Part shown: piece after piece, positions 12,512-33,108 of the stretch
How the letters are laid out: each line of letters begins with the position of its first letter
Position numbering within the stretch: position 1 is the first letter of the stretch
IMG/VR virus record: IMGVR_UViG_3300023278_000857
Span: 1 to 64,000 of that record
Strand: one strand, 5' to 3'
Length of the DNA: 64,000 nt
Source of the DNA: a virus
Translations under genes and position numbers: made by a program
The notes under the pieces: model-generated
Seen by the model: only the letters and a program-made list of their open reading frames with translations
What the model was told of the DNA's origin: nothing
The model's database searches: none

Positions 12512-13666
12512 ATGGCTAAATCAGCAACTCGTAAGAAAAAAACAGTACGTGCTACAAGACGTAAAGGCGCCTGGGATATGGTTCCACTAACAGATTGGCA
12601 TGGAACACACTATCACGTCCATTATCTAATGGAATCCAAAGAGTGGTTAAACCAAGTTAAAAACTATATCAAGAAGAACTATGATAAAGAAACACAACAA
12701 GCCATTAACAAACTTCCAGACTGGAAAGTTGGTGGTAAAAGTCATTATGCTACGGCGGCATTTATTGAAGAAAATAAGCCTGAGATCTTGCATCCTGATT
12801 ACACAGGTAAACTAAATGAATGGGTTGTCAGCCTGGCTGAAGAAGGTCAAAAGATCGTAGAGATTAAACAAGCTGAAGAAAGTACAAAAAAAGTAAAGTA
12901 CGTGCCTACTATTCAGGAACGGTTAATGGAAGCTACTATTGATAAAATGGAAGAGCTTGACCAGTGGGAAGATGAATGGATTCGTGATCCTAAAAAGAAT
13001 CCACTTAAAGATAAACAACCACTAAAACTATTTCGTAAGTTAGAAATTAATCTTGGTCATGCTCGTTGGATTCAACAATTTTACGAAGGTGCATATCAAG
13101 AACTAACTGAGCTTGTCAACTTGCCTACTCCTAAAAAACAAGACGATATGCAGCAACAACTTGCTGAAGGCTTTAGTCATTTAAGTACAAAAGAGAAAAA
13201 AGAACTACATAGTTTTTATGAGCGTATTTTCCAAGCACTTGAAATACTACGTGCTGAAAAGAAACAAACACGAACTGTTCGCAAGCCAAAGCAAAAGAGT
13301 GCTGTTGACTTAGTTAAGAAGTTGAAGTTTAAAGCAAGCGATCCAGACTTTGGAATTAGCAGTATTCCTCCGCAAGACATTGTGGGTGCGTCAGCATTAG
13401 TTGTGTTTAACTGTAAAACACGTAAACTTGGCATTTACTATGCTGAACATGAAGCTACACTTCAAGTTAAAGGGACTACACTTCAGTTCTTTGATGAGAA
13501 AACAAGTAGACAAAAAACAGTACGTAAGCCAAGTGAAATATTGCCACAGTGGAAAAAGGTAACGCAGCACAAACTAAAAGCACAGTTCGGATATCTGAAA
13601 ACTACTGATATTAAAATGAACGGTAGACTTAATGAAGATACTATTCTACTAAAAGCCTTCAAATAG
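12512..13666 (+). CDS. Hypothetical basic protein upstream of gp13
   Basis: 384 aa, clear AGGAGAAT ribosome binding site. The N-terminus is very basic (MAKSATRKKKTVRATRRKGAWD), suggesting nucleic-acid binding. Several lysine-rich helices follow, and a C-terminal region with GASALVVFNCKTRKLGIYYAEHEATLQVKGTTLQFF, predicted beta, then KAQFGYLKTTDIKMNGRLNEDTILLKAF. No catalytic motif is apparent. It is preceded by a possible early-type promoter but lies just upstream of the late gene gp13. I do not recognise the family with certainty. Confidence 0.65.
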   Translation: MAKSATRKKKTVRATRRKGAWDMVPLTDWHGTHYHVHYLMESKEWLNQVKNYIKKNYDKETQQAINKLPDWKVGGKSHYATAAFIEENKPEILHPDYTGKLNEWVVSLAEEGQKIVEIKQAEESTKKVKYVPTIQERLMEATIDKMEELDQWEDEWIRDPKKNPLKDKQPLKLFRKLEINLGHARWIQQFYEGAYQELTELVNLPTPKKQDDMQQQLAEGFSHLSTKEKKELHSFYERIFQALEILRAEKKQTRTVRKPKQKSAVDLVKKLKFKASDPDFGISSIPPQDIVGASALVVFNCKTRKLGIYYAEHEATLQVKGTTLQFFDEKTSRQKTVRKPSEILPQWKKVTQHKLKAQFGYLKTTDIKMNGRLNEDTILLKAFK

Positions 13667-29360: not shown

Positions 29361-29645
29361 ATGAAACTATCAGATTTTAAAAAAATGGAAACACGTCCTG
29401 GATCTTTCCAGACAATACTACAGTTTGGAGACCAAATAGAACTGTCAGTTATTAGCGGAGACGGATCTTATTCCAGTATTGATGCTCCATATGAAATCGC
29501 AGTATTTCGCAACGGTGAGTTTACTCAGTTTCCAGGTATTACAGGCCCAGACGATGATGTTCGTGGACATCTAGTTGAACAGGATGTTGATTTGGTTATT
29601 AAGAAACTTGTTACTGTAACTAAAGCCGATCCTGTACAAGTATAA
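29361..29645 (+). CDS. Hypothetical protein before the tRNA island
   Basis: 94 aa. ATG 29361 was chosen for the GGAGGT site at 29347-29352. KKMETRPGSFQTILQFGDQIELSVISGDGSYSSID suggests a small beta barrel, followed by a FPGITGPDDDVRGHLVEQDVDLVIKKL helix. No family recognised. It probably shares the message of the preceding gene. Confidence 0.55.
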   Translation: MKLSDFKKMETRPGSFQTILQFGDQIELSVISGDGSYSSIDAPYEIAVFRNGEFTQFPGITGPDDDVRGHLVEQDVDLVIKKLVTVTKADPVQV

Positions 29646-29670
29646 AGTAAACTAAAAACAATAGAATTAA

Positions 29671-29747
29671 GGTTCCTTAGCACAGCTGGATAGTGCAGCC
29701 GCCTTCTAAGCGGCAGGTCATAGGTTCGAATCCTATAGGGACCACCA
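29671..29747 (+). tRNA. tRNA-Arg (TCT)
   Basis: Cloverleaf with GGTTCCT/AGGGACC acceptor, GCAC/GTGC D-stem, GCCGC-CTTCTAA-GCGGC anticodon arm (TCT, reads AGA), ATAGG-TTCGAAT-CCTAT T-arm and an encoded CCA end. Confidence 0.95.
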
Positions 29748-29754
29748 GAATACA

Positions 29755-29838
29755 CCTAGTGATGATAAATGGGGAATCTCAGCGCTCATAACGCTTCGTC
29801 GTAAGACCGAGTTGGTTCGATTCCAACCGCTAGGACCA
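29755..29838 (+). tRNA. tRNA with CAT anticodon and long variable arm
   Basis: CCTAGTG/CGCTAGG acceptor, GAT/ATC D-stem, loop CTCATAA (anticodon CAT), GTTGG-TTCGATT-CCAAC T-arm, encoded CCA. Unusual: the region between anticodon and T arms is 14 nt with a GTC-GTAA-GAC hairpin, i.e. class II shape, not expected for Met or Ile. Position 8 is A rather than T. It could decode AUA if the C is modified, or AUG. Confidence 0.75.
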
Positions 29839-29873
29839 ATAATCTGTTACGCAGTGGTTTTAAGTTCGAATAG

Positions 29874-29880
29874 ATAAATA
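29874..29880 (+). promoter_or_regulatory. Late promoter ATAAATA abutting HNH gene 1
   Basis: ATAAATA with 5 nt (ACTAT) before ATG 29886, no ribosome binding site. Confidence 0.65.
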
Positions 29881-29885
29881 ACTAT

Positions 29886-30323
29886 ATGAACAAATGTAAC
29901 CACTGCGAAGCAGACACAAACAACCCAAAGTTTTGTAGCAAATCTTGTGCTGCAAAATATAATAACAAAGGTGTTAGACGGCACGGCAAAGATCCTATTA
30001 AGTGTGTAGTATGTAATACAGAAACACGCAATAAGAAATTTTGTAGTAGTAAGTGTTCAGGCTCTGTTAGGAAAAAAGATCCTAAACTAATAGCCGCAAG
30101 TAATGCCGCAAGGCAAGCACGTTACAGAGCAAAGTATGGATATAATAGAGCATATGCCAAAGACGCCAATAAAGAAGTGATGAAGATGATATATGAGAAT
30201 TGTCCAGTGGGACACGAAGTAGACCATATTATGCCATTGTCAAAAGGCGGACTACACCACGAAGATAATCTACAATATCTTACTGTAAAAGAAAATAGGA
30301 AAAAAGGTAATAGTACTCCTTAA
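29886..30323 (+). CDS. HNH endonuclease 1 (tRNA island)
   Basis: 145 aa. Two Cys clusters (CNHCEAD...CSKSCAAKY and CVVCNTE...CSSKCSG) form treble-clef/zinc-ribbon DNA-binding units. The HNH motif is HEVDHIMPLSKGGLHHEDNLQYLTVKENRKKGN: DH, N and the final KN-like K-x-N. It would nick or cut a specific DNA site, typical of free-standing homing endonucleases in T4-like genomes. Set between tRNA genes with a late promoter directly at its start. Confidence 0.85.
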   Translation: MNKCNHCEADTNNPKFCSKSCAAKYNNKGVRRHGKDPIKCVVCNTETRNKKFCSSKCSGSVRKKDPKLIAASNAARQARYRAKYGYNRAYAKDANKEVMKMIYENCPVGHEVDHIMPLSKGGLHHEDNLQYLTVKENRKKGNSTP

Positions 30324-30509
30324 GAGTACCAAAAGACGTGTTGGGTAGCACCAGCTAGTATGGGTTAGCAAATCCCATATGACGAGAAGTGATGTTGCAG
30401 TCACAACAAAAGGCTCGATGAAAGTATTCCGGCATGTGTTTGTCGTTAGCGTGGATAGGCGGAGCGAAAGCGTTGAGAACCTCCCACGCATACACAGAAA
30501 TTAGATACT
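30313..30509 (+). other. Intergenic segment with several hairpins, possible structured RNA
   Basis: Between HNH gene 1 and tRNA-Leu. GTACTC/GAGTAC at the HNH stop (30313-30329) may be a weak terminator. Then GTG/CAC around TTGGGTAG (30338-30351, D-arm-like), TATGGG/CCCATA (30359-30379), GTGA/TCAC (30389-30404), and GCGTGG...CCACGC with inner AGG/CCT and a GC-GAAA-GC tetraloop (30449-30489). No ORF and no T-arm consensus, so it is not a normal tRNA. Confidence 0.4.
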
Positions 30510-30594
30510 GCCCGCGTGATGGAATGGTAGACATAACAGACTTAAAATCTGTGGCCTTCAAGGCGTGTCGGTTCGAGTCCGACCGCGGGTACCA
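30510..30594 (+). tRNA. tRNA-Leu (TAA)
   Basis: Acceptor GCCCGCG/CGCGGGT, anticodon arm ACAGA-CTTAAAA-TCTGT (TAA, reads UUA), long variable arm GGCCTTCAAGGC as expected for Leu, T-arm GTCGG-TTCGAGT-CCGAC, encoded CCA. Confidence 0.95.
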
Positions 30595-30599
30595 AAAAT

Positions 30600-30690
30600 G
30601 GAAGTGAGACTTGGTAGTCAGAGGAGTCTTATAAGCTCTTTGCGCCAGATTAGCGCCTTTGAGGTGGTTCGAATCCACCCACTTCTACCA
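30600..30690 (+). tRNA. tRNA with TAT anticodon and long variable arm
   Basis: Acceptor GGAAGTG/CACTTCT, short D-stem GAC/GTC, anticodon arm GGAGT-CTTATAA-GCTCT (TAT, reads AUA), T-arm GGTGG-TTCGAAT-CCACC, encoded CCA. Between them is a 23-nt variable region with GCGC/GCGC stem, class II like Leu and Ser tRNAs rather than Ile. Isotype by anticodon is Ile, but charging is uncertain. Confidence 0.75.
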
Positions 30691-30711
30691 ATTTAAACGA
30701 CAGACGAATAG

Positions 30712-30740
30712 TTGACAGACACTAAATAAACTGTTATAAT
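30712..30740 (+). promoter_or_regulatory. Perfect sigma70 promoter inside the tRNA island
   Basis: TTGACA 30712-30717, 17-bp spacer, TATAAT 30735-30740. It precedes tRNA-Asn and tRNA-Ser and is the best sigma70 match in the window. Confidence 0.85.
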
Positions 30741-30795
30741 AAACAAGTAAGCAAAGACGTTTACAACGCTATTTAAGATTTAAGAAACTAAATGT

Positions 30796-30870
30796 TCCGA
30801 CGTAGCTCAGCGGTAGAGCAGTTGACTGTTAATCAATTGGTCGTAGGTTCGATCCCTACCGTCGGAGCCA
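30796..30870 (+). tRNA. tRNA-Asn (GTT)
   Basis: Acceptor TCCGACG/CGTCGGA, D-arm GCTC/GAGC, anticodon arm GTTGA-CTGTTAA-TCAAT (GTT), T-arm GTAGG-TTCGATC-CCTAC, G discriminator, encoded CCA. Confidence 0.95.
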
Positions 30871-30876
30871 AAATAA

Positions 30877-30967
30877 GGAGAGTTGGCCGAGTGGCTTAAG
30901 GCACCCGATTACTAATCGGACGAACGTTAATAGCGTTCCGTGGGTTCGAATCCCACACTCTCTGCCA
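30877..30967 (+). tRNA. tRNA-Ser with ACT anticodon
   Basis: Acceptor GGAGAGT/ACTCTCT, G discriminator and long variable arm GAACG/CGTTC identify a Ser-type tRNA. The anticodon loop TTACTAA gives ACT where GCT is normal, with a 4-bp CCGA/TCGG stem plus a C-A mismatch. T-arm GTGGG-TTCGAAT-CCCAC, encoded CCA. Confidence 0.85.
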
Positions 30968-30969
30968 TA

Positions 30970-30976
30970 ATAAATA
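30970..30976 (+). promoter_or_regulatory. Late promoter ATAAATA abutting a microprotein gene
   Basis: ATAAATA with 5 nt (AGTAC) to ATG 30982. Confidence 0.55.
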
Positions 30977-30981
30977 AGTAC

Positions 30982-31059
30982 ATGGTTAATAAATGTCCTG
31001 AATGTAAATTTGAATTGGATCATAATGATTTTTGTCCAATTTGTAGAGTAAAAAGATAA
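30982..31059 (+). CDS. 25-residue zinc-ribbon microprotein
   Basis: ATG 30982 to TAA 31057-31059. KCPECKFELDHNDFCPICRVK has two CxxC knuckles 11 residues apart, enough for one structural zinc. It uses the same late-promoter layout as the HNH genes nearby (5 nt to ATG). It could be a free DNA-binding knuckle left from an HNH protein or a true microprotein. Confidence 0.5.
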   Translation: MVNKCPECKFELDHNDFCPICRVKR

Positions 31060-31080
31060 CGCCGCAATAGATGGTTTAGT

Positions 31081-31106
31081 TTTGCTCAACTAATAGAGCA
31101 AATTTT
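31081..31106 (+). terminator. Weak terminator-like hairpin
   Basis: TTTGCTC (31081-31087) pairs with GAGCAAA (31096-31102), loop AACTAATA, followed by TTTT. It would close the microprotein message before the next late promoter. Confidence 0.5.
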
Positions 31107-31116
31107 GCTTAAAAGG

Positions 31117-31123
31117 ATAAATA
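31117..31123 (+). promoter_or_regulatory. Late promoter ATAAATA for HNH gene 2
   Basis: ATAAATA 22 nt before ATG 31146; unlike its neighbours this gene has a GGGAGA ribosome binding site. Confidence 0.6.
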
Positions 31124-31145
31124 CTTTTGAGCAAGGGAGACACCA

Positions 31146-31652
31146 ATGTTTAAATGCGGTGAATGTAAAAAAGAATATGCTACCCAAAGAGCGTTGAACG
31201 CACATATGGTAGCACATAAAGAAGGAAGTAGATATAGCGTTAGCAGAGCAGGACCTATAAAAACATTTATATGTCTACACTGTGGAAATGAAAACAAATG
31301 GTCACACTCGACTAAGAATAAATTTTGTAATTTAGAGTGCCAACATAGTTTCCAACATAACGAACACATTCGTAGTTGGAAGGAAACAGGTAAACTAAGC
31401 AAAGGACCAGTTAAGCGTTACTTGGCAGAACAAGTAAGTGGATGCTGGGAGTGCGGAATTACTGAGTGGAACCAAAAGCCAATTGTGTTAGAATTAGAAC
31501 ACAAAGATGGCAATTCAGAAAATAACGCTGAAGATAATCTAAGTTTGTTATGTCCTAACTGTCATAGTCAGACATCAACATACAAGGGTAGAAATAAAGG
31601 AAACGGACGACATAGTAGAATGAAACGCTATTATGAAGGACAAAGTTTCTAA
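31146..31652 (+). CDS. HNH endonuclease 2 with N-terminal C2H2 zinc finger
   Basis: 168 aa. Residues 4-25 form a C2H2 finger: C-GE-C-x12-H-MVA-H. A second Cys cluster (ICLHCGNEN...FCNLEC) and the HNH domain follow: CWECGI, LELEHKDGNSENNAEDNLSLLCPNCHSQTSTYKGRNKG, where the H-x-D/G, N and H residues of the beta-beta-alpha metal fold are present. Likely a site-specific homing nuclease. Its stop codon is immediately followed by the first base of tRNA-Thr, as if inserted flush with the tRNA. Confidence 0.85.
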   Translation: MFKCGECKKEYATQRALNAHMVAHKEGSRYSVSRAGPIKTFICLHCGNENKWSHSTKNKFCNLECQHSFQHNEHIRSWKETGKLSKGPVKRYLAEQVSGCWECGITEWNQKPIVLELEHKDGNSENNAEDNLSLLCPNCHSQTSTYKGRNKGNGRHSRMKRYYEGQSF

Positions 31653-31727
31653 GCTGATGTGGCCCAATGGTAAGGCAACTGATTTGTAATCAGTAGATTG
31701 GGAGTTCGATCCTCTCCATCAGCACCA
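31653..31727 (+). tRNA. tRNA-Thr (TGT)
   Basis: Acceptor GCTGATG/CATCAGC, anticodon arm ACTGA-TTTGTAA-TCAGT (TGT, reads ACA), GAG-TTCGATC-CTC T-arm, encoded CCA. It starts on the base after the HNH gene 2 stop. Confidence 0.95.
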
Positions 31728-31734
31728 TTAATAT

Positions 31735-31756
31735 GCGCCTGTGGTGAAATTGGTAG
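31735..31756 (+). tRNA. 5' half of a split tRNA-Leu
   Basis: GCGCCTG followed by TGGTGAAATTGGTAG is the acceptor strand and first part of the D arm of a Leu tRNA. The D-stem is not completed. The acceptor strand is perfectly complementary (7 of 7) to CAGGCGC at 32558-32564, the 3' half some 800 nt downstream. A hairpin (GGTAG..ACAAA / TTTGT-CTACC, 31752-31782) and a late promoter come directly after it. Confidence 0.75.
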
Positions 31757-31789
31757 GTAAAACAAATATGCGTTTGTCTACCAACTTAG

Positions 31790-31796
31790 ATAAATA
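31790..31796 (+). promoter_or_regulatory. Late promoter ATAAATA abutting HNH gene 3
   Basis: ATAAATA with 5 nt (ACTGT) before ATG 31802, no ribosome binding site. Confidence 0.65.
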
Positions 31797-31801
31797 ACTG
31801 T

Positions 31802-32428
31802 ATGAACAATACAGATATACCATTAGGAAAACTTTGCGATAGCGGCTGTGGACAACAGGCACAGTATTTTAGTAAAGACACAGGAAGATATAGGTGTCTT
31901 AAAAGTGCTAACAGTTGTCCTGCTAATAAAGCAAAGAATAGCAAAGGCTTAAAGAAAGCCCACGCTGAAGGAAGAATACCCGTCTTTACAGACGAAATGC
32001 GTGAGAAATCACATATTAGTCATAGGCGCAAATTAGTAGAAGAGAAACCTTTTGAGGATCTTGGACACATATTGCGGAAAAAGATTGTACTGGAAGAACA
32101 AGACTACAAGTGCTTACATTGCAATTTAGATGAATGGATGGGGTTGCGTATAACATTAGAGTTGGATCATATCGATGGCAACAATAAAAATAATGTTAGA
32201 AGCAATTTAAGATGCCTTTGCCCTAACTGCCATAGTATTACAGATACTTGGAAAGTAGGAAATATCAAAGGCAAAAACACAAGGAAGCGTAGCGATGAAG
32301 AAATCATCGCTGCCTTTAAGAAGTGTAGTAGTATGAATGCTACATTAAAGGAATTAGGTTATAACTGGGGTAGTGCTGGTACTGTAAAAAAAGTACTATT
32401 CCAATATAAACTAATAGAAAGTATTTAG
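31802..32428 (+). CDS. HNH endonuclease 3, inside the split tRNA-Leu
   Basis: 208 aa. N-terminal Cys cluster (LCDSGCGQQAQYF...YRCLKSANSC), a basic linker, then the HNH domain: CLHCNLDEWMGL, LELDHIDGNNKNNVRSNLRCLCPNCHSITDTWKVGNIKG with H-x-D, N and H residues. The C-terminus (DEEIIAAFKKCSSMNATLKELGYNWGSAGTVKKVL) is a helix-turn-helix-like DNA-binding module typical of phage HNH homing enzymes. It lies between the two halves of a tRNA-Leu, directly before an intact tRNA-Leu(TAG). Confidence 0.87.
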   Translation: MNNTDIPLGKLCDSGCGQQAQYFSKDTGRYRCLKSANSCPANKAKNSKGLKKAHAEGRIPVFTDEMREKSHISHRRKLVEEKPFEDLGHILRKKIVLEEQDYKCLHCNLDEWMGLRITLELDHIDGNNKNNVRSNLRCLCPNCHSITDTWKVGNIKGKNTRKRSDEEIIAAFKKCSSMNATLKELGYNWGSAGTVKKVLFQYKLIESI

Positions 32429-32432
32429 GTAT

Positions 32433-32517
32433 GCGGGTGTGGCGAAATTGGTAACCGCATCACGTTTAGGTCGTGACGCCGCAAGGCTTGGGGGTTCGAG
32501 TCCCTTCACCCGTACCA
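32433..32517 (+). tRNA. tRNA-Leu (TAG)
   Basis: Acceptor GCGGGTG/CACCCGT, anticodon arm TCACG-TTTAGGT-CGTGA (TAG, reads CUA), long variable arm with GCC/GGC, T-arm with TTCGAGT loop, encoded CCA. It starts 4 nt after HNH gene 3. Confidence 0.95.
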
Positions 32518-32524
32518 AATATAA

Positions 32525-32568
32525 AGGTGCTTTACGGCGTGGGGGTTCAAGTCCCTCCAGGCGCACCA
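32525..32568 (+). tRNA. 3' half of a split tRNA-Leu
   Basis: GGTGCTTTACGGCGT (variable arm type seen in Leu tRNAs) then GGGGG-TTCAAGT-CCCTC T-arm, acceptor strand CAGGCGC (32558-32564), A discriminator and encoded CCA. There is no acceptor 5' strand, D arm or anticodon arm upstream within tRNA distance; the matching 5' strand is at 31735-31741. Confidence 0.75.
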
Positions 32569-32657
32569 TATAAAGGGTTTTGTTCCCCTTGTAAAACAAT
32601 TGAGCAAATGGTGCCCAGGATGTCCTAAGCAGGACCCAAAACTGCTTACACTAATTC

Positions 32658-32742
32658 GTCAATGCGGGTTTGCTAACAGTAACAGACACTACAGGCGTCA
32701 TGTCAACTACTGCGGTAAGGTTCGACTCCTTAATTGACACCA
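32658..32742 (+). tRNA. tRNA-like element, isotype not assignable
   Basis: 85 nt. GTCAAT at 32658 pairs with ATTGAC at 32733-32738; a good T arm (TAAGG-TTCGACT-CCTTA), A discriminator and encoded CCA are present. No D arm with GG loop and no 7-nt anticodon loop with T33 can be drawn; GACAC/GCGTC around TACAG is the best middle hairpin. Either a degenerate tRNA, an interrupted tRNA, or a tRNA mimic. The stretch before it (32569-32657) holds GTCCT-AAGC-AGGAC and GTTTT/AAAAC hairpins but no gene. Confidence 0.5.
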
Positions 32743-32748
32743 AGACAA

Positions 32749-32824
32749 TGGAAAGTAGATCAATTGGTAGATCATTTGTTTTTGGTACAAAAGGTTGAAG
32801 GTTCGAGTCCTTCCTTTCCAGCCA
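32749..32824 (+). tRNA. tRNA-Gln (TTG)
   Basis: Acceptor TGGAAAG/CTTTCCA, D-arm GATC/GATC, anticodon arm TTTGT-TTTTGGT-ACAAA (TTG, reads CAA), T-arm GAAGG-TTCGAGT-CCTTC, G discriminator, encoded CCA. Confidence 0.95.
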
Positions 32825-32853
32825 AAGTTATAAAAATATAAAGGAAAAATAAA

Positions 32854-33108
32854 ATGGATATTATTTTAATTGCAGTAATCCTCTCGGGCCTAGTAGGTTA
32901 CTGGGCAAACAACTGGGGGCGCAATGGCTGGCTTTGGTTTGCTGCTTCGTTACTAGTATCATCACTAATCACAGCAATTGTGTTGTTCTTTATGGGCAGA
33001 GATGGTGCCGCAAAAGAAGAAAAAGAAGCACAAGAGATTGAAGCAGAAGCACAGAAATCTGCTGCTATCGAGAAACGTAAATCAGAATTAATGAAGGATA
33101 AAAAATGA
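32854..33108 (+). CDS. Small two-helix membrane protein
   Basis: 84 aa. Two hydrophobic segments (IILIAVILSGLVGYWA and GWLWFAASLLVSSLITAIVLFF) joined by a short NNWGRNG turn, then a charged helical tail (EEKEAQEIEAEAQ...KSELMKDKK). Architecture fits class II/III holin-like or other small phage inner-membrane proteins, but the genome position after the tRNA island gives no support for lysis. AAAGGAAAAATAAAATG supplies the ribosome binding site. Overlaps the next gene by 4 nt. Confidence 0.6.
   Translation: MDIILIAVILSGLVGYWANNWGRNGWLWFAASLLVSSLITAIVLFFMGRDGAAKEEKEAQEIEAEAQKSAAIEKRKSELMKDKK

What the first reader, a model, noticed from the sequence alone, without database searches (positions are those of the whole stretch)
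31735..32568. tRNA-Leu split into two halves around an HNH gene and an intact tRNA-Leu
GCGCCTG plus the D-arm start (31735-31756) and a T-arm/acceptor half with CAGGCGC-A-CCA (32525-32568) are perfectly complementary (7 of 7 acceptor pairs) but 800 nt apart. Between them are a hairpin, a late promoter, HNH gene 3 and tRNA-Leu(TAG). Either an HNH insertion destroyed a tRNA gene, or the halves are transcribed and joined (intron or trans-splicing). The anticodon arm is not visible in either half.
Basis: partly seen in the sequence, partly recalled or inferred. Interest (0 to 1): 0.8.

Follow-up and report, generated by a model that had tools for sequence, protein, structure and literature searches.

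The report
Endonuclease-tRNA cassette split a tRNA gene
In this phage a DNA-cutting-enzyme gene that carries its own working leucine tRNA has landed inside the phage's original leucine tRNA gene, cutting it into two dead halves while supplying a replacement; related phages show the same trick with leucine, threonine, lysine and asparagine tRNAs, which looks like a natural 'cut and rescue' selfish gene.

Summary
The two halves are real and come from one gene. In at least 29 viral contigs (L003-L034) the 5' half's 22 nt (31735-31756) begin an intact tRNA-Leu(UAG), usually just after tRNA-Thr(UGU); the 42-nt 3' half (32527-32568) is its other end. Exactly 21 nt, the anticodon-arm stretch, are gone from this window. 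The halves therefore cannot be joined into a working tRNA, and there is no intron match. The insert is an HNH endonuclease gene followed within 4 nt by an intact, different tRNA-Leu(UAG). It recurs as a unit: all full-length relatives of this HNH (71-90% identical) are followed by tRNA-Leu(UAG) at 0-4 nt. In their 23-member clade every abutting tRNA is Leu (18/18). Two other assemblies (L128/L132) show the same split-plus-replacement layout in a different resident tRNA; L036 shows it for Thr, L143 and L159 for others; one-sided cases exist for Lys and Asn. Breaks fall mostly in the D-loop (TTGGTAG). Best reading: a free-standing homing endonuclease that targets tRNA genes and brings a replacement tRNA ('home and rescue'). 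Architecture and isotype association are shown; cleavage, homing and rescue are inferred. I found no description in the papers I could search.

The parts
31735..31756 (+). 5' half (nt 1-22) of the resident tRNA-Leu(UAG), ending in the D-loop TTGGTAG
   Evidence: identical to nt 1-22 of intact tRNA-Leu(TAG) in relatives
31750..31784 (+). hairpin; its 5' arm is the D-loop TTGGTAG of the tRNA remnant, its 3' arm CTACCAA lies in the insert
   Evidence: MFE -14 kcal/mol, z -1.0, not exceptional alone; same layout TTGGTAG..CTACTAA in L128
31789..31796 (+). GATAAATA, T4-type late-promoter-like motif before the HNH gene
   Evidence: sequence; [ATG]ATAAATA in 41 of 120 HNH upstream regions against 3.8 in shuffles
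31802..32428 (+). HNH3 endonuclease gene, 208 aa, HNH signature residues conserved
   Evidence: PHROG HNH endonuclease E 7e-25; invariant H123, N127, N135, H144 in alignment; no Pfam match
32433..32517 (+). intact replacement tRNA-Leu(UAG) carried by the cassette
   Evidence: ARAGORN, Rfam 50.5 bits; nearest relative is the cassette tRNA of L130, 88%, closer than any non-cassette Leu tRNA held
32527..32568 (+). 3' half (last 42 nt, variable arm to CCA) of the resident tRNA-Leu(UAG)
31061..31070 (+). remnant of the 5' end of a former tRNA-Thr (GCCGCAATAG), left of HNH2; the first 22 nt are kept in L036
   Evidence: 93% match of 30973-31070 to L004 9728-9828, which runs into its intact tRNA-Thr(TGT); L036
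31146..31652 (+). HNH2 endonuclease gene of a second cassette, 168 aa
   Evidence: PHROG HNH; 96% homolog L036
31653..31727 (+). intact tRNA-Thr(UGU) of the HNH2 cassette, starting at the base after the HNH2 stop codon
   Evidence: 99% identical to the cassette tRNA-Thr of L036
29886..30323 (+). HNH1 gene beside tRNA-Met(CAT) 29755-29838; probably a third, differently arranged case
   Evidence: Pfam HNH; the tRNA-Met neighbour recurs in L114, L115, L117-L120

Best explanation
HNH3 plus the following tRNA-Leu(UAG) is a mobile unit that entered the resident tRNA-Leu(UAG) gene at its D-loop. The endonuclease probably cuts leucine tRNA genes of co-infecting phages; repair from a cassette-bearing genome copies the HNH and its tRNA into the cut gene, leaving a 22-nt 5' half and a 42-nt 3' half and losing the 21-nt anticodon-arm stretch. 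The cassette's own tRNA-Leu(UAG), different in sequence around the break, replaces the destroyed gene, so insertion into a useful gene is tolerated. Shown: single origin of the halves, the exact deletion, co-inheritance of HNH and tRNA, isotype fidelity, repeated independent cases. Inferred: cutting, homing, resistance of the replacement tRNA, and its function.
For: Uninterrupted tRNA-Leu(UAG) with the same ends in many contigs, usually after tRNA-Thr as in the window. All HNH3 relatives with 71-90% identity (L035, L128/L132, L130/L131, L133) have tRNA-Leu(UAG) at 0-4 nt from the stop. Their 23-member clade: 18/18 abutting tRNAs are Leu, against about 10% Leu in the same loci; isotype changes on the HNH tree 17 against 29.8 mean (minimum 26) in 1000 shuffles. 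The nearest kin of the cassette tRNA is another cassette's tRNA. The same split layout with 7/7 acceptor pairing (G-U counted) in L128/L132, L143, L159 and, without matching acceptors, L036. One-sided halves of the same isotype as the abutting tRNA in L038, L134, L166, L169, L070/L075/L078/L080/L091. HNH signature intact. SegB of T6, a free-standing homing endonuclease, is shown to cut inside tRNA genes (PMC13096335).
Against: No cleavage, homing or expression data. The insertion junction in this window is seen in one contig only; an exact scan for its right junction found no other. Many related HNH genes lie next to tRNAs with no detectable halves. In L036 the two Thr halves do not pair (3 of 7). 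The D-loop motif difference (0/28 cassette tRNAs with TTGGTAG against 61/199 others) may partly reflect ancestry. Some L-loci are related or duplicate contigs.
Confidence: 0.7

Rival explanations
1. The halves are a functional split or intron-containing tRNA, transcribed apart and joined.
For: Acceptor halves perfectly complementary, 7/7.
Against: The anticodon-arm stretch is deleted, not displaced; no intron family match at E up to 10; joined halves are not called as a tRNA; an intact tRNA with the same anticodon lies between them.
Confidence: 0.02
2. Passive mosaicism: an HNH gene and a foreign tRNA-Leu were moved in by ordinary phage recombination, and the resident tRNA decayed; the enzyme neither targets tRNA genes nor needs a rescue copy.
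For: tRNA arrays are recombination-prone; many HNH-tRNA neighbours have no halves; the right-hand junction looks ragged.
Against: HNH lineage predicts the isotype of the abutting tRNA; breaks recur near nt 20-25 in Leu, Thr, Lys and Asn genes; 48 of 120 HNH genes have a tRNA starting from 45 nt before to 6 nt after the stop.
Confidence: 0.17
3. The cassette is mainly a phage-beneficial device that exchanges or amplifies tRNA genes against tRNA-cutting host defences, as SegB does in T6; the split is a by-product.
For: SegB amplifies tRNA-Tyr to overcome Septu (PMC13096335); cassette tRNAs differ from resident ones.
Against: No tandem amplification is seen here; isotype fidelity and broken cognate genes are explained by selfish homing alone. 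Not exclusive of the best explanation.
Confidence: 0.1
4. Insertion with target duplication: the element carries only a copy of the tRNA 5' part and restores the resident gene, as tRNA-integrating islands restore the 3' end.
For: In L075 and L091 the upstream 20-nt Lys half is nearly the same sequence as the start of the intact tRNA-Lys.
Against: In the window the intact tRNA differs from the resident over its length (acceptor 2 of 7 different) and the resident 3' half lies outside it; acceptors also differ in L128, L143, L159, L134, L166, L038.
Confidence: 0.03

Closest known systems
SegB of T-even phages (free-standing GIY-YIG homing endonuclease in the tRNA region)
   Same: Lies in a phage tRNA array, cuts inside tRNA genes, late promoter upstream, co-localises with tRNAs (PMC13096335; PMC2988022).
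   Different: HNH, not GIY-YIG. SegB's motif RAWTSGAAC reads as the T-loop on the other strand (my reading), whereas breaks here lie mostly in the D-loop. SegB shows no isotype preference in that study; here isotype follows HNH lineage. No split gene with replacement tRNA is described there.
Free-standing HNH homing endonucleases of T4 (MobA-MobE)
   Same: HNH nuclease outside an intron, in the direction of neighbouring genes (PMC2988022).
   Different: The T4 ones are listed between protein genes; none is described with a replacement copy of the gene it interrupts.
Engineered home-and-rescue / cleave-and-rescue gene drives
   Same: A nuclease destroys a useful gene and the same cassette carries a version meant to be uncut (HomeR PMC7968924; ClvR PMC7951863, titles and abstracts).
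   Different: Artificial, Cas9-based, in insects; here natural, an HNH enzyme and a tRNA. Analogy of logic only.
tRNA-integrating islands and phages
   Same: Insert into a tRNA gene with an intact tRNA left afterwards (own knowledge).
   Different: They use an integrase and restore the resident 3' end; here no integrase lies in the insert, both resident halves are left and a whole foreign tRNA is added.

Membership tests
Free-standing homing endonuclease (HNH type) | Nuclease of a homing-endonuclease fold with intact catalytic motif, outside an intron or intein | tested here: met
   HNH PHROG match, conserved signature, no intron found
Free-standing homing endonuclease (HNH type) | Present in some and absent from other genomes at the same site (empty site exists) | tested here: met
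   uninterrupted Thr-Leu pairs in L004, L010, L016 and others
Free-standing homing endonuclease (HNH type) | Cuts the empty allele and is inherited preferentially | not testable with these tools
   needs biochemistry and mixed infection
SegB family | GIY-YIG nuclease domain | tested here: not met
   only HNH families match
Group I intron in a tRNA gene | Catalytic core RNA between the exons | tested here: not met
   no intron family at E up to 10 in 29600-32900
Split (trans-spliced) tRNA | Halves that together hold a complete tRNA including anticodon | tested here: not met
   21-nt anticodon-arm stretch deleted
tRNA-integrating element | Integrase gene and att duplication restoring the resident tRNA end | tested here: not met
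   the insert holds only the HNH ORF and a whole tRNA; the resident 3' half stays outside
Home-and-rescue element (by analogy) | Carries a functional replacement of the gene it destroys | tested here: inconclusive
   an intact same-anticodon tRNA is present and co-inherited; function not tested
Home-and-rescue element (by analogy) | Replacement copy resists the nuclease | tested here: inconclusive
   cassette tRNAs lack the break-site motif TTGGTAG, 0/28 against 61/199 (Fisher p 1e-4, not corrected for ancestry)

The most novel reading that the evidence does not exclude
A widespread family of natural home-and-rescue selfish elements in phage tRNA arrays: each HNH lineage specialises in one tRNA isotype (Leu, Thr, Lys, Asn, Val), destroys that tRNA gene in competitors and carries a cut-resistant replacement, so that losing the cassette also costs the phage the tRNA.
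Probability: 0.5. Interest if true: 0.78.

Novelty: new variant of a known kind. Interest (0 to 1): 0.62.

Why it matters
It offers a reason why phage tRNA arrays are full of endonuclease genes, tRNA fragments and diverged duplicate tRNAs: tRNA genes as homing sites with built-in replacement. It would be a natural counterpart of engineered rescue drives, a mechanism for tRNA exchange between phages, and it is testable with synthetic tRNA-gene substrates. It also warns that half tRNAs in such arrays need not be split tRNAs.

Tried and rejected
Split or trans-spliced tRNA and intron: rejected. Halves from two different tRNAs: rejected, relatives join them in one gene. Simple HNH insertion without a passenger: rejected, since the tRNA-Leu recurs with the HNH. 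Target-site duplication only: rejected for the window. A second contig with the exact right junction: none. HNH3 in bacterial and archaeal genomes: no relative in one single-protein scan. HNH3 in GenBank phages: the listed matches cover only the HNH core except one distant hit, LR756508. Phage isolates with HNH beside tRNA: RN05-S has an HNH frame whose stop codon lies in tRNA-Val, with a TTGGTAG..CTACCA hairpin upstream but no longer half; GAP32 has tRNA-Thr upstream of the HNH gene. No structure prediction was made: the family assignment did not need it. Papers: ten searches of the held open library found no description of tRNA genes split by endonuclease-tRNA cassettes; subscription literature was not searchable.

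Full report
Observation. The window is 64 kb of a 72.6 kb IMG/VR virus record with tail-sheath, terminase, helicase and ribonucleotide-reductase genes, i.e. a tailed phage. A tRNA array spans 29671-32824 with three HNH genes in it. The 5' half (31735-31756) is nt 1-22 and the 3' half (32527-32568) the last 42 nt of one tRNA-Leu(UAG). The exact 22-nt 5' sequence was found in 32 viral contigs; in at least 29 of them it begins an intact tRNA-Leu(UAG), usually directly after tRNA-Thr(UGU) as in the window. The alignment with L004, L010 and L016 shows a single clean gap of 21 nt, ACACGCTAGATTTAGGTTCTA, which contains the anticodon and most of its arm. This sequence is nowhere in the window. Hence the halves belong together historically but cannot make a tRNA.

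What was inserted. Between the halves lie a late-promoter-like GATAAATA, the 208-aa HNH3 gene and, 4 nt after its stop, an intact tRNA-Leu(UAG) of another sequence. A single-protein scan gave one relative, L035, 90% identical, with tRNA-Leu(UAG) at its stop codon in another context. A profile scan added L128/L132, L130/L131 and L133 (71-84%), each followed by tRNA-Leu(UAG) at 0-4 nt. The closest tRNA to the window's cassette tRNA is L130's cassette tRNA (88%), and to L035's it is L128's (96%); non-cassette Leu tRNAs are more distant. HNH and tRNA therefore travel together.

Is it repeated? L128/L132 (two assemblies) show the same layout in another resident gene: GCGGGTATAGGCCAATTGGTAG, HNH, intact tRNA-Leu, then ..CTCTACCCGCACCA, acceptor pairing 7/7. 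L143 and L159 also have both halves with 7/7 pairing, G-U counted. L036, a 96% homolog of this window's HNH2, has a 22-nt Thr 5' half, HNH, intact tRNA-Thr, and a Thr-like 3' half, although these two halves do not pair (3 of 7). L137 likewise has candidate halves that do not pair (3 of 7). One-sided halves of the same isotype as the abutting tRNA occur in L038 (Thr), L134 (Leu), L166 and L169 (Asn), and L070/L075/L078/L080/L091 (Lys). In shuffled flanks the best half-like score was 15; I counted real matches from 16, and several hits just above this threshold are doubtful. The 5' break is at nt 20-25 in most cases (22 in the window, L036 and L128) and near the anticodon loop in L038 (34) and L143 (36). 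In this window HNH2 has the same anatomy, with a decayed Thr remnant upstream (31061-31070) and an intact tRNA-Thr at its stop codon. HNH1 kin stand beside tRNA-Met(CAT) and seem to break the T-loop.

Statistics. Of 120 distinct HNH proteins, 54 have a tRNA starting from 45 nt before to 25 nt after the stop codon. In 30 of the 120 the nearest tRNA starts before the stop, so the gene ends inside the tRNA. The isotype follows the HNH tree: 17 changes against 29.8 on average and at least 26 in 1000 shuffles. The clade with HNH3 has 18 of 18 Leu (UAG, UAA, CAA). The loci were gathered by protein, not by tRNA, so this is not circular; relatedness within clades means that the 18 are not independent, which the tree-based count takes into account. 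Upstream of the HNH genes the motif [ATG]ATAAATA is found in 41 of 120 against 3.8 in shuffles, and a GAAC..GTTC inverted repeat in 26 against 1.6. This resembles the late promoter with hairpin described for T4 homing endonucleases (PMC2988022). In the window the remnant's own TTGGTAG is the 5' arm of a hairpin with CTACCAA; its energy is not exceptional.

Mechanism. Shown: origin of the halves, deletion, unit of co-inheritance, isotype fidelity, recurrence. Inferred: the HNH protein cuts the cognate tRNA gene near the D-loop; repair from a cassette-bearing genome uses the two tRNA halves as flanking homology; the middle is lost; the carried tRNA replaces the lost one and escapes cutting because its D-loop region differs. 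In support, none of 28 cassette Leu and Thr tRNAs has TTGGTAG against 61 of 199 others (Fisher p 1e-4; ancestry not corrected). Capture of new resident genes, as in L128 against the window, needs occasional ectopic events.

Comparison. SegB of T6 is the nearest characterised system: it cuts inside tRNA genes and amplifies tRNA-Tyr (PMC13096335). It is a GIY-YIG enzyme with no reported isotype preference, and the authors do not describe split genes with replacement tRNAs. The logic is that of engineered home-and-rescue drives (PMC7968924, PMC7951863). I file the window's element as a free-standing HNH homing endonuclease by anatomy, with cutting untested.

Limits. The window's own junction rests on one contig. 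Most comparison loci are metagenome contigs, some of them duplicates. No expression or biochemical data were available.

Noticed in passing
window 32594-32748: A degenerate tRNA-like 3' end (GGTAAGGTTCGACTCCTTAATTGACACCA) before tRNA-Gln with no intact tRNA called; possibly another broken tRNA gene.
   Followed up: no
window 29755-29838 and 29886-30323; L115, L116: HNH1 kin stand beside tRNA-Met(CAT); in L115 and L116 a T-loop-like GGTTCAAA lies upstream and ..CCTACCGGGAGCACCA downstream of the ORF, suggesting a break in the T-loop rather than the D-loop.
   Followed up: partly
L032 5739-5860, L025 (minus strand near 12841): A tRNA-Leu with the resident-type 5' end carries a stretch of roughly 35 nt inside its anticodon loop, near the place of the known tRNA-Leu(UAA) intron; possibly a tiny intron or its remnant.
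   Followed up: no
L035 232-694: GOLLD RNA with a tRNA-Arg in it lies beside the HNH-tRNA-Leu cassette.
   Followed up: no
L137 1816-2102: A permuted tmRNA (Rfam RF04321, 100.9 bits) in a viral contig.
   Followed up: no
L035 1472-1548, L128 2957-3033, L134 3129-3206: Some cassette tRNA-Leu(UAG) are only about 77 nt long and lack the long variable arm usual for bacterial tRNA-Leu; whether they are charged with leucine is open.
   Followed up: no
L112 1137-1658 (Synechococcus phage RN05-S): A cultured phage has an unannotated HNH reading frame whose stop codon lies inside tRNA-Val, with a TTGGTAG..TATAAATA..CTACCA hairpin upstream.
   Followed up: partly
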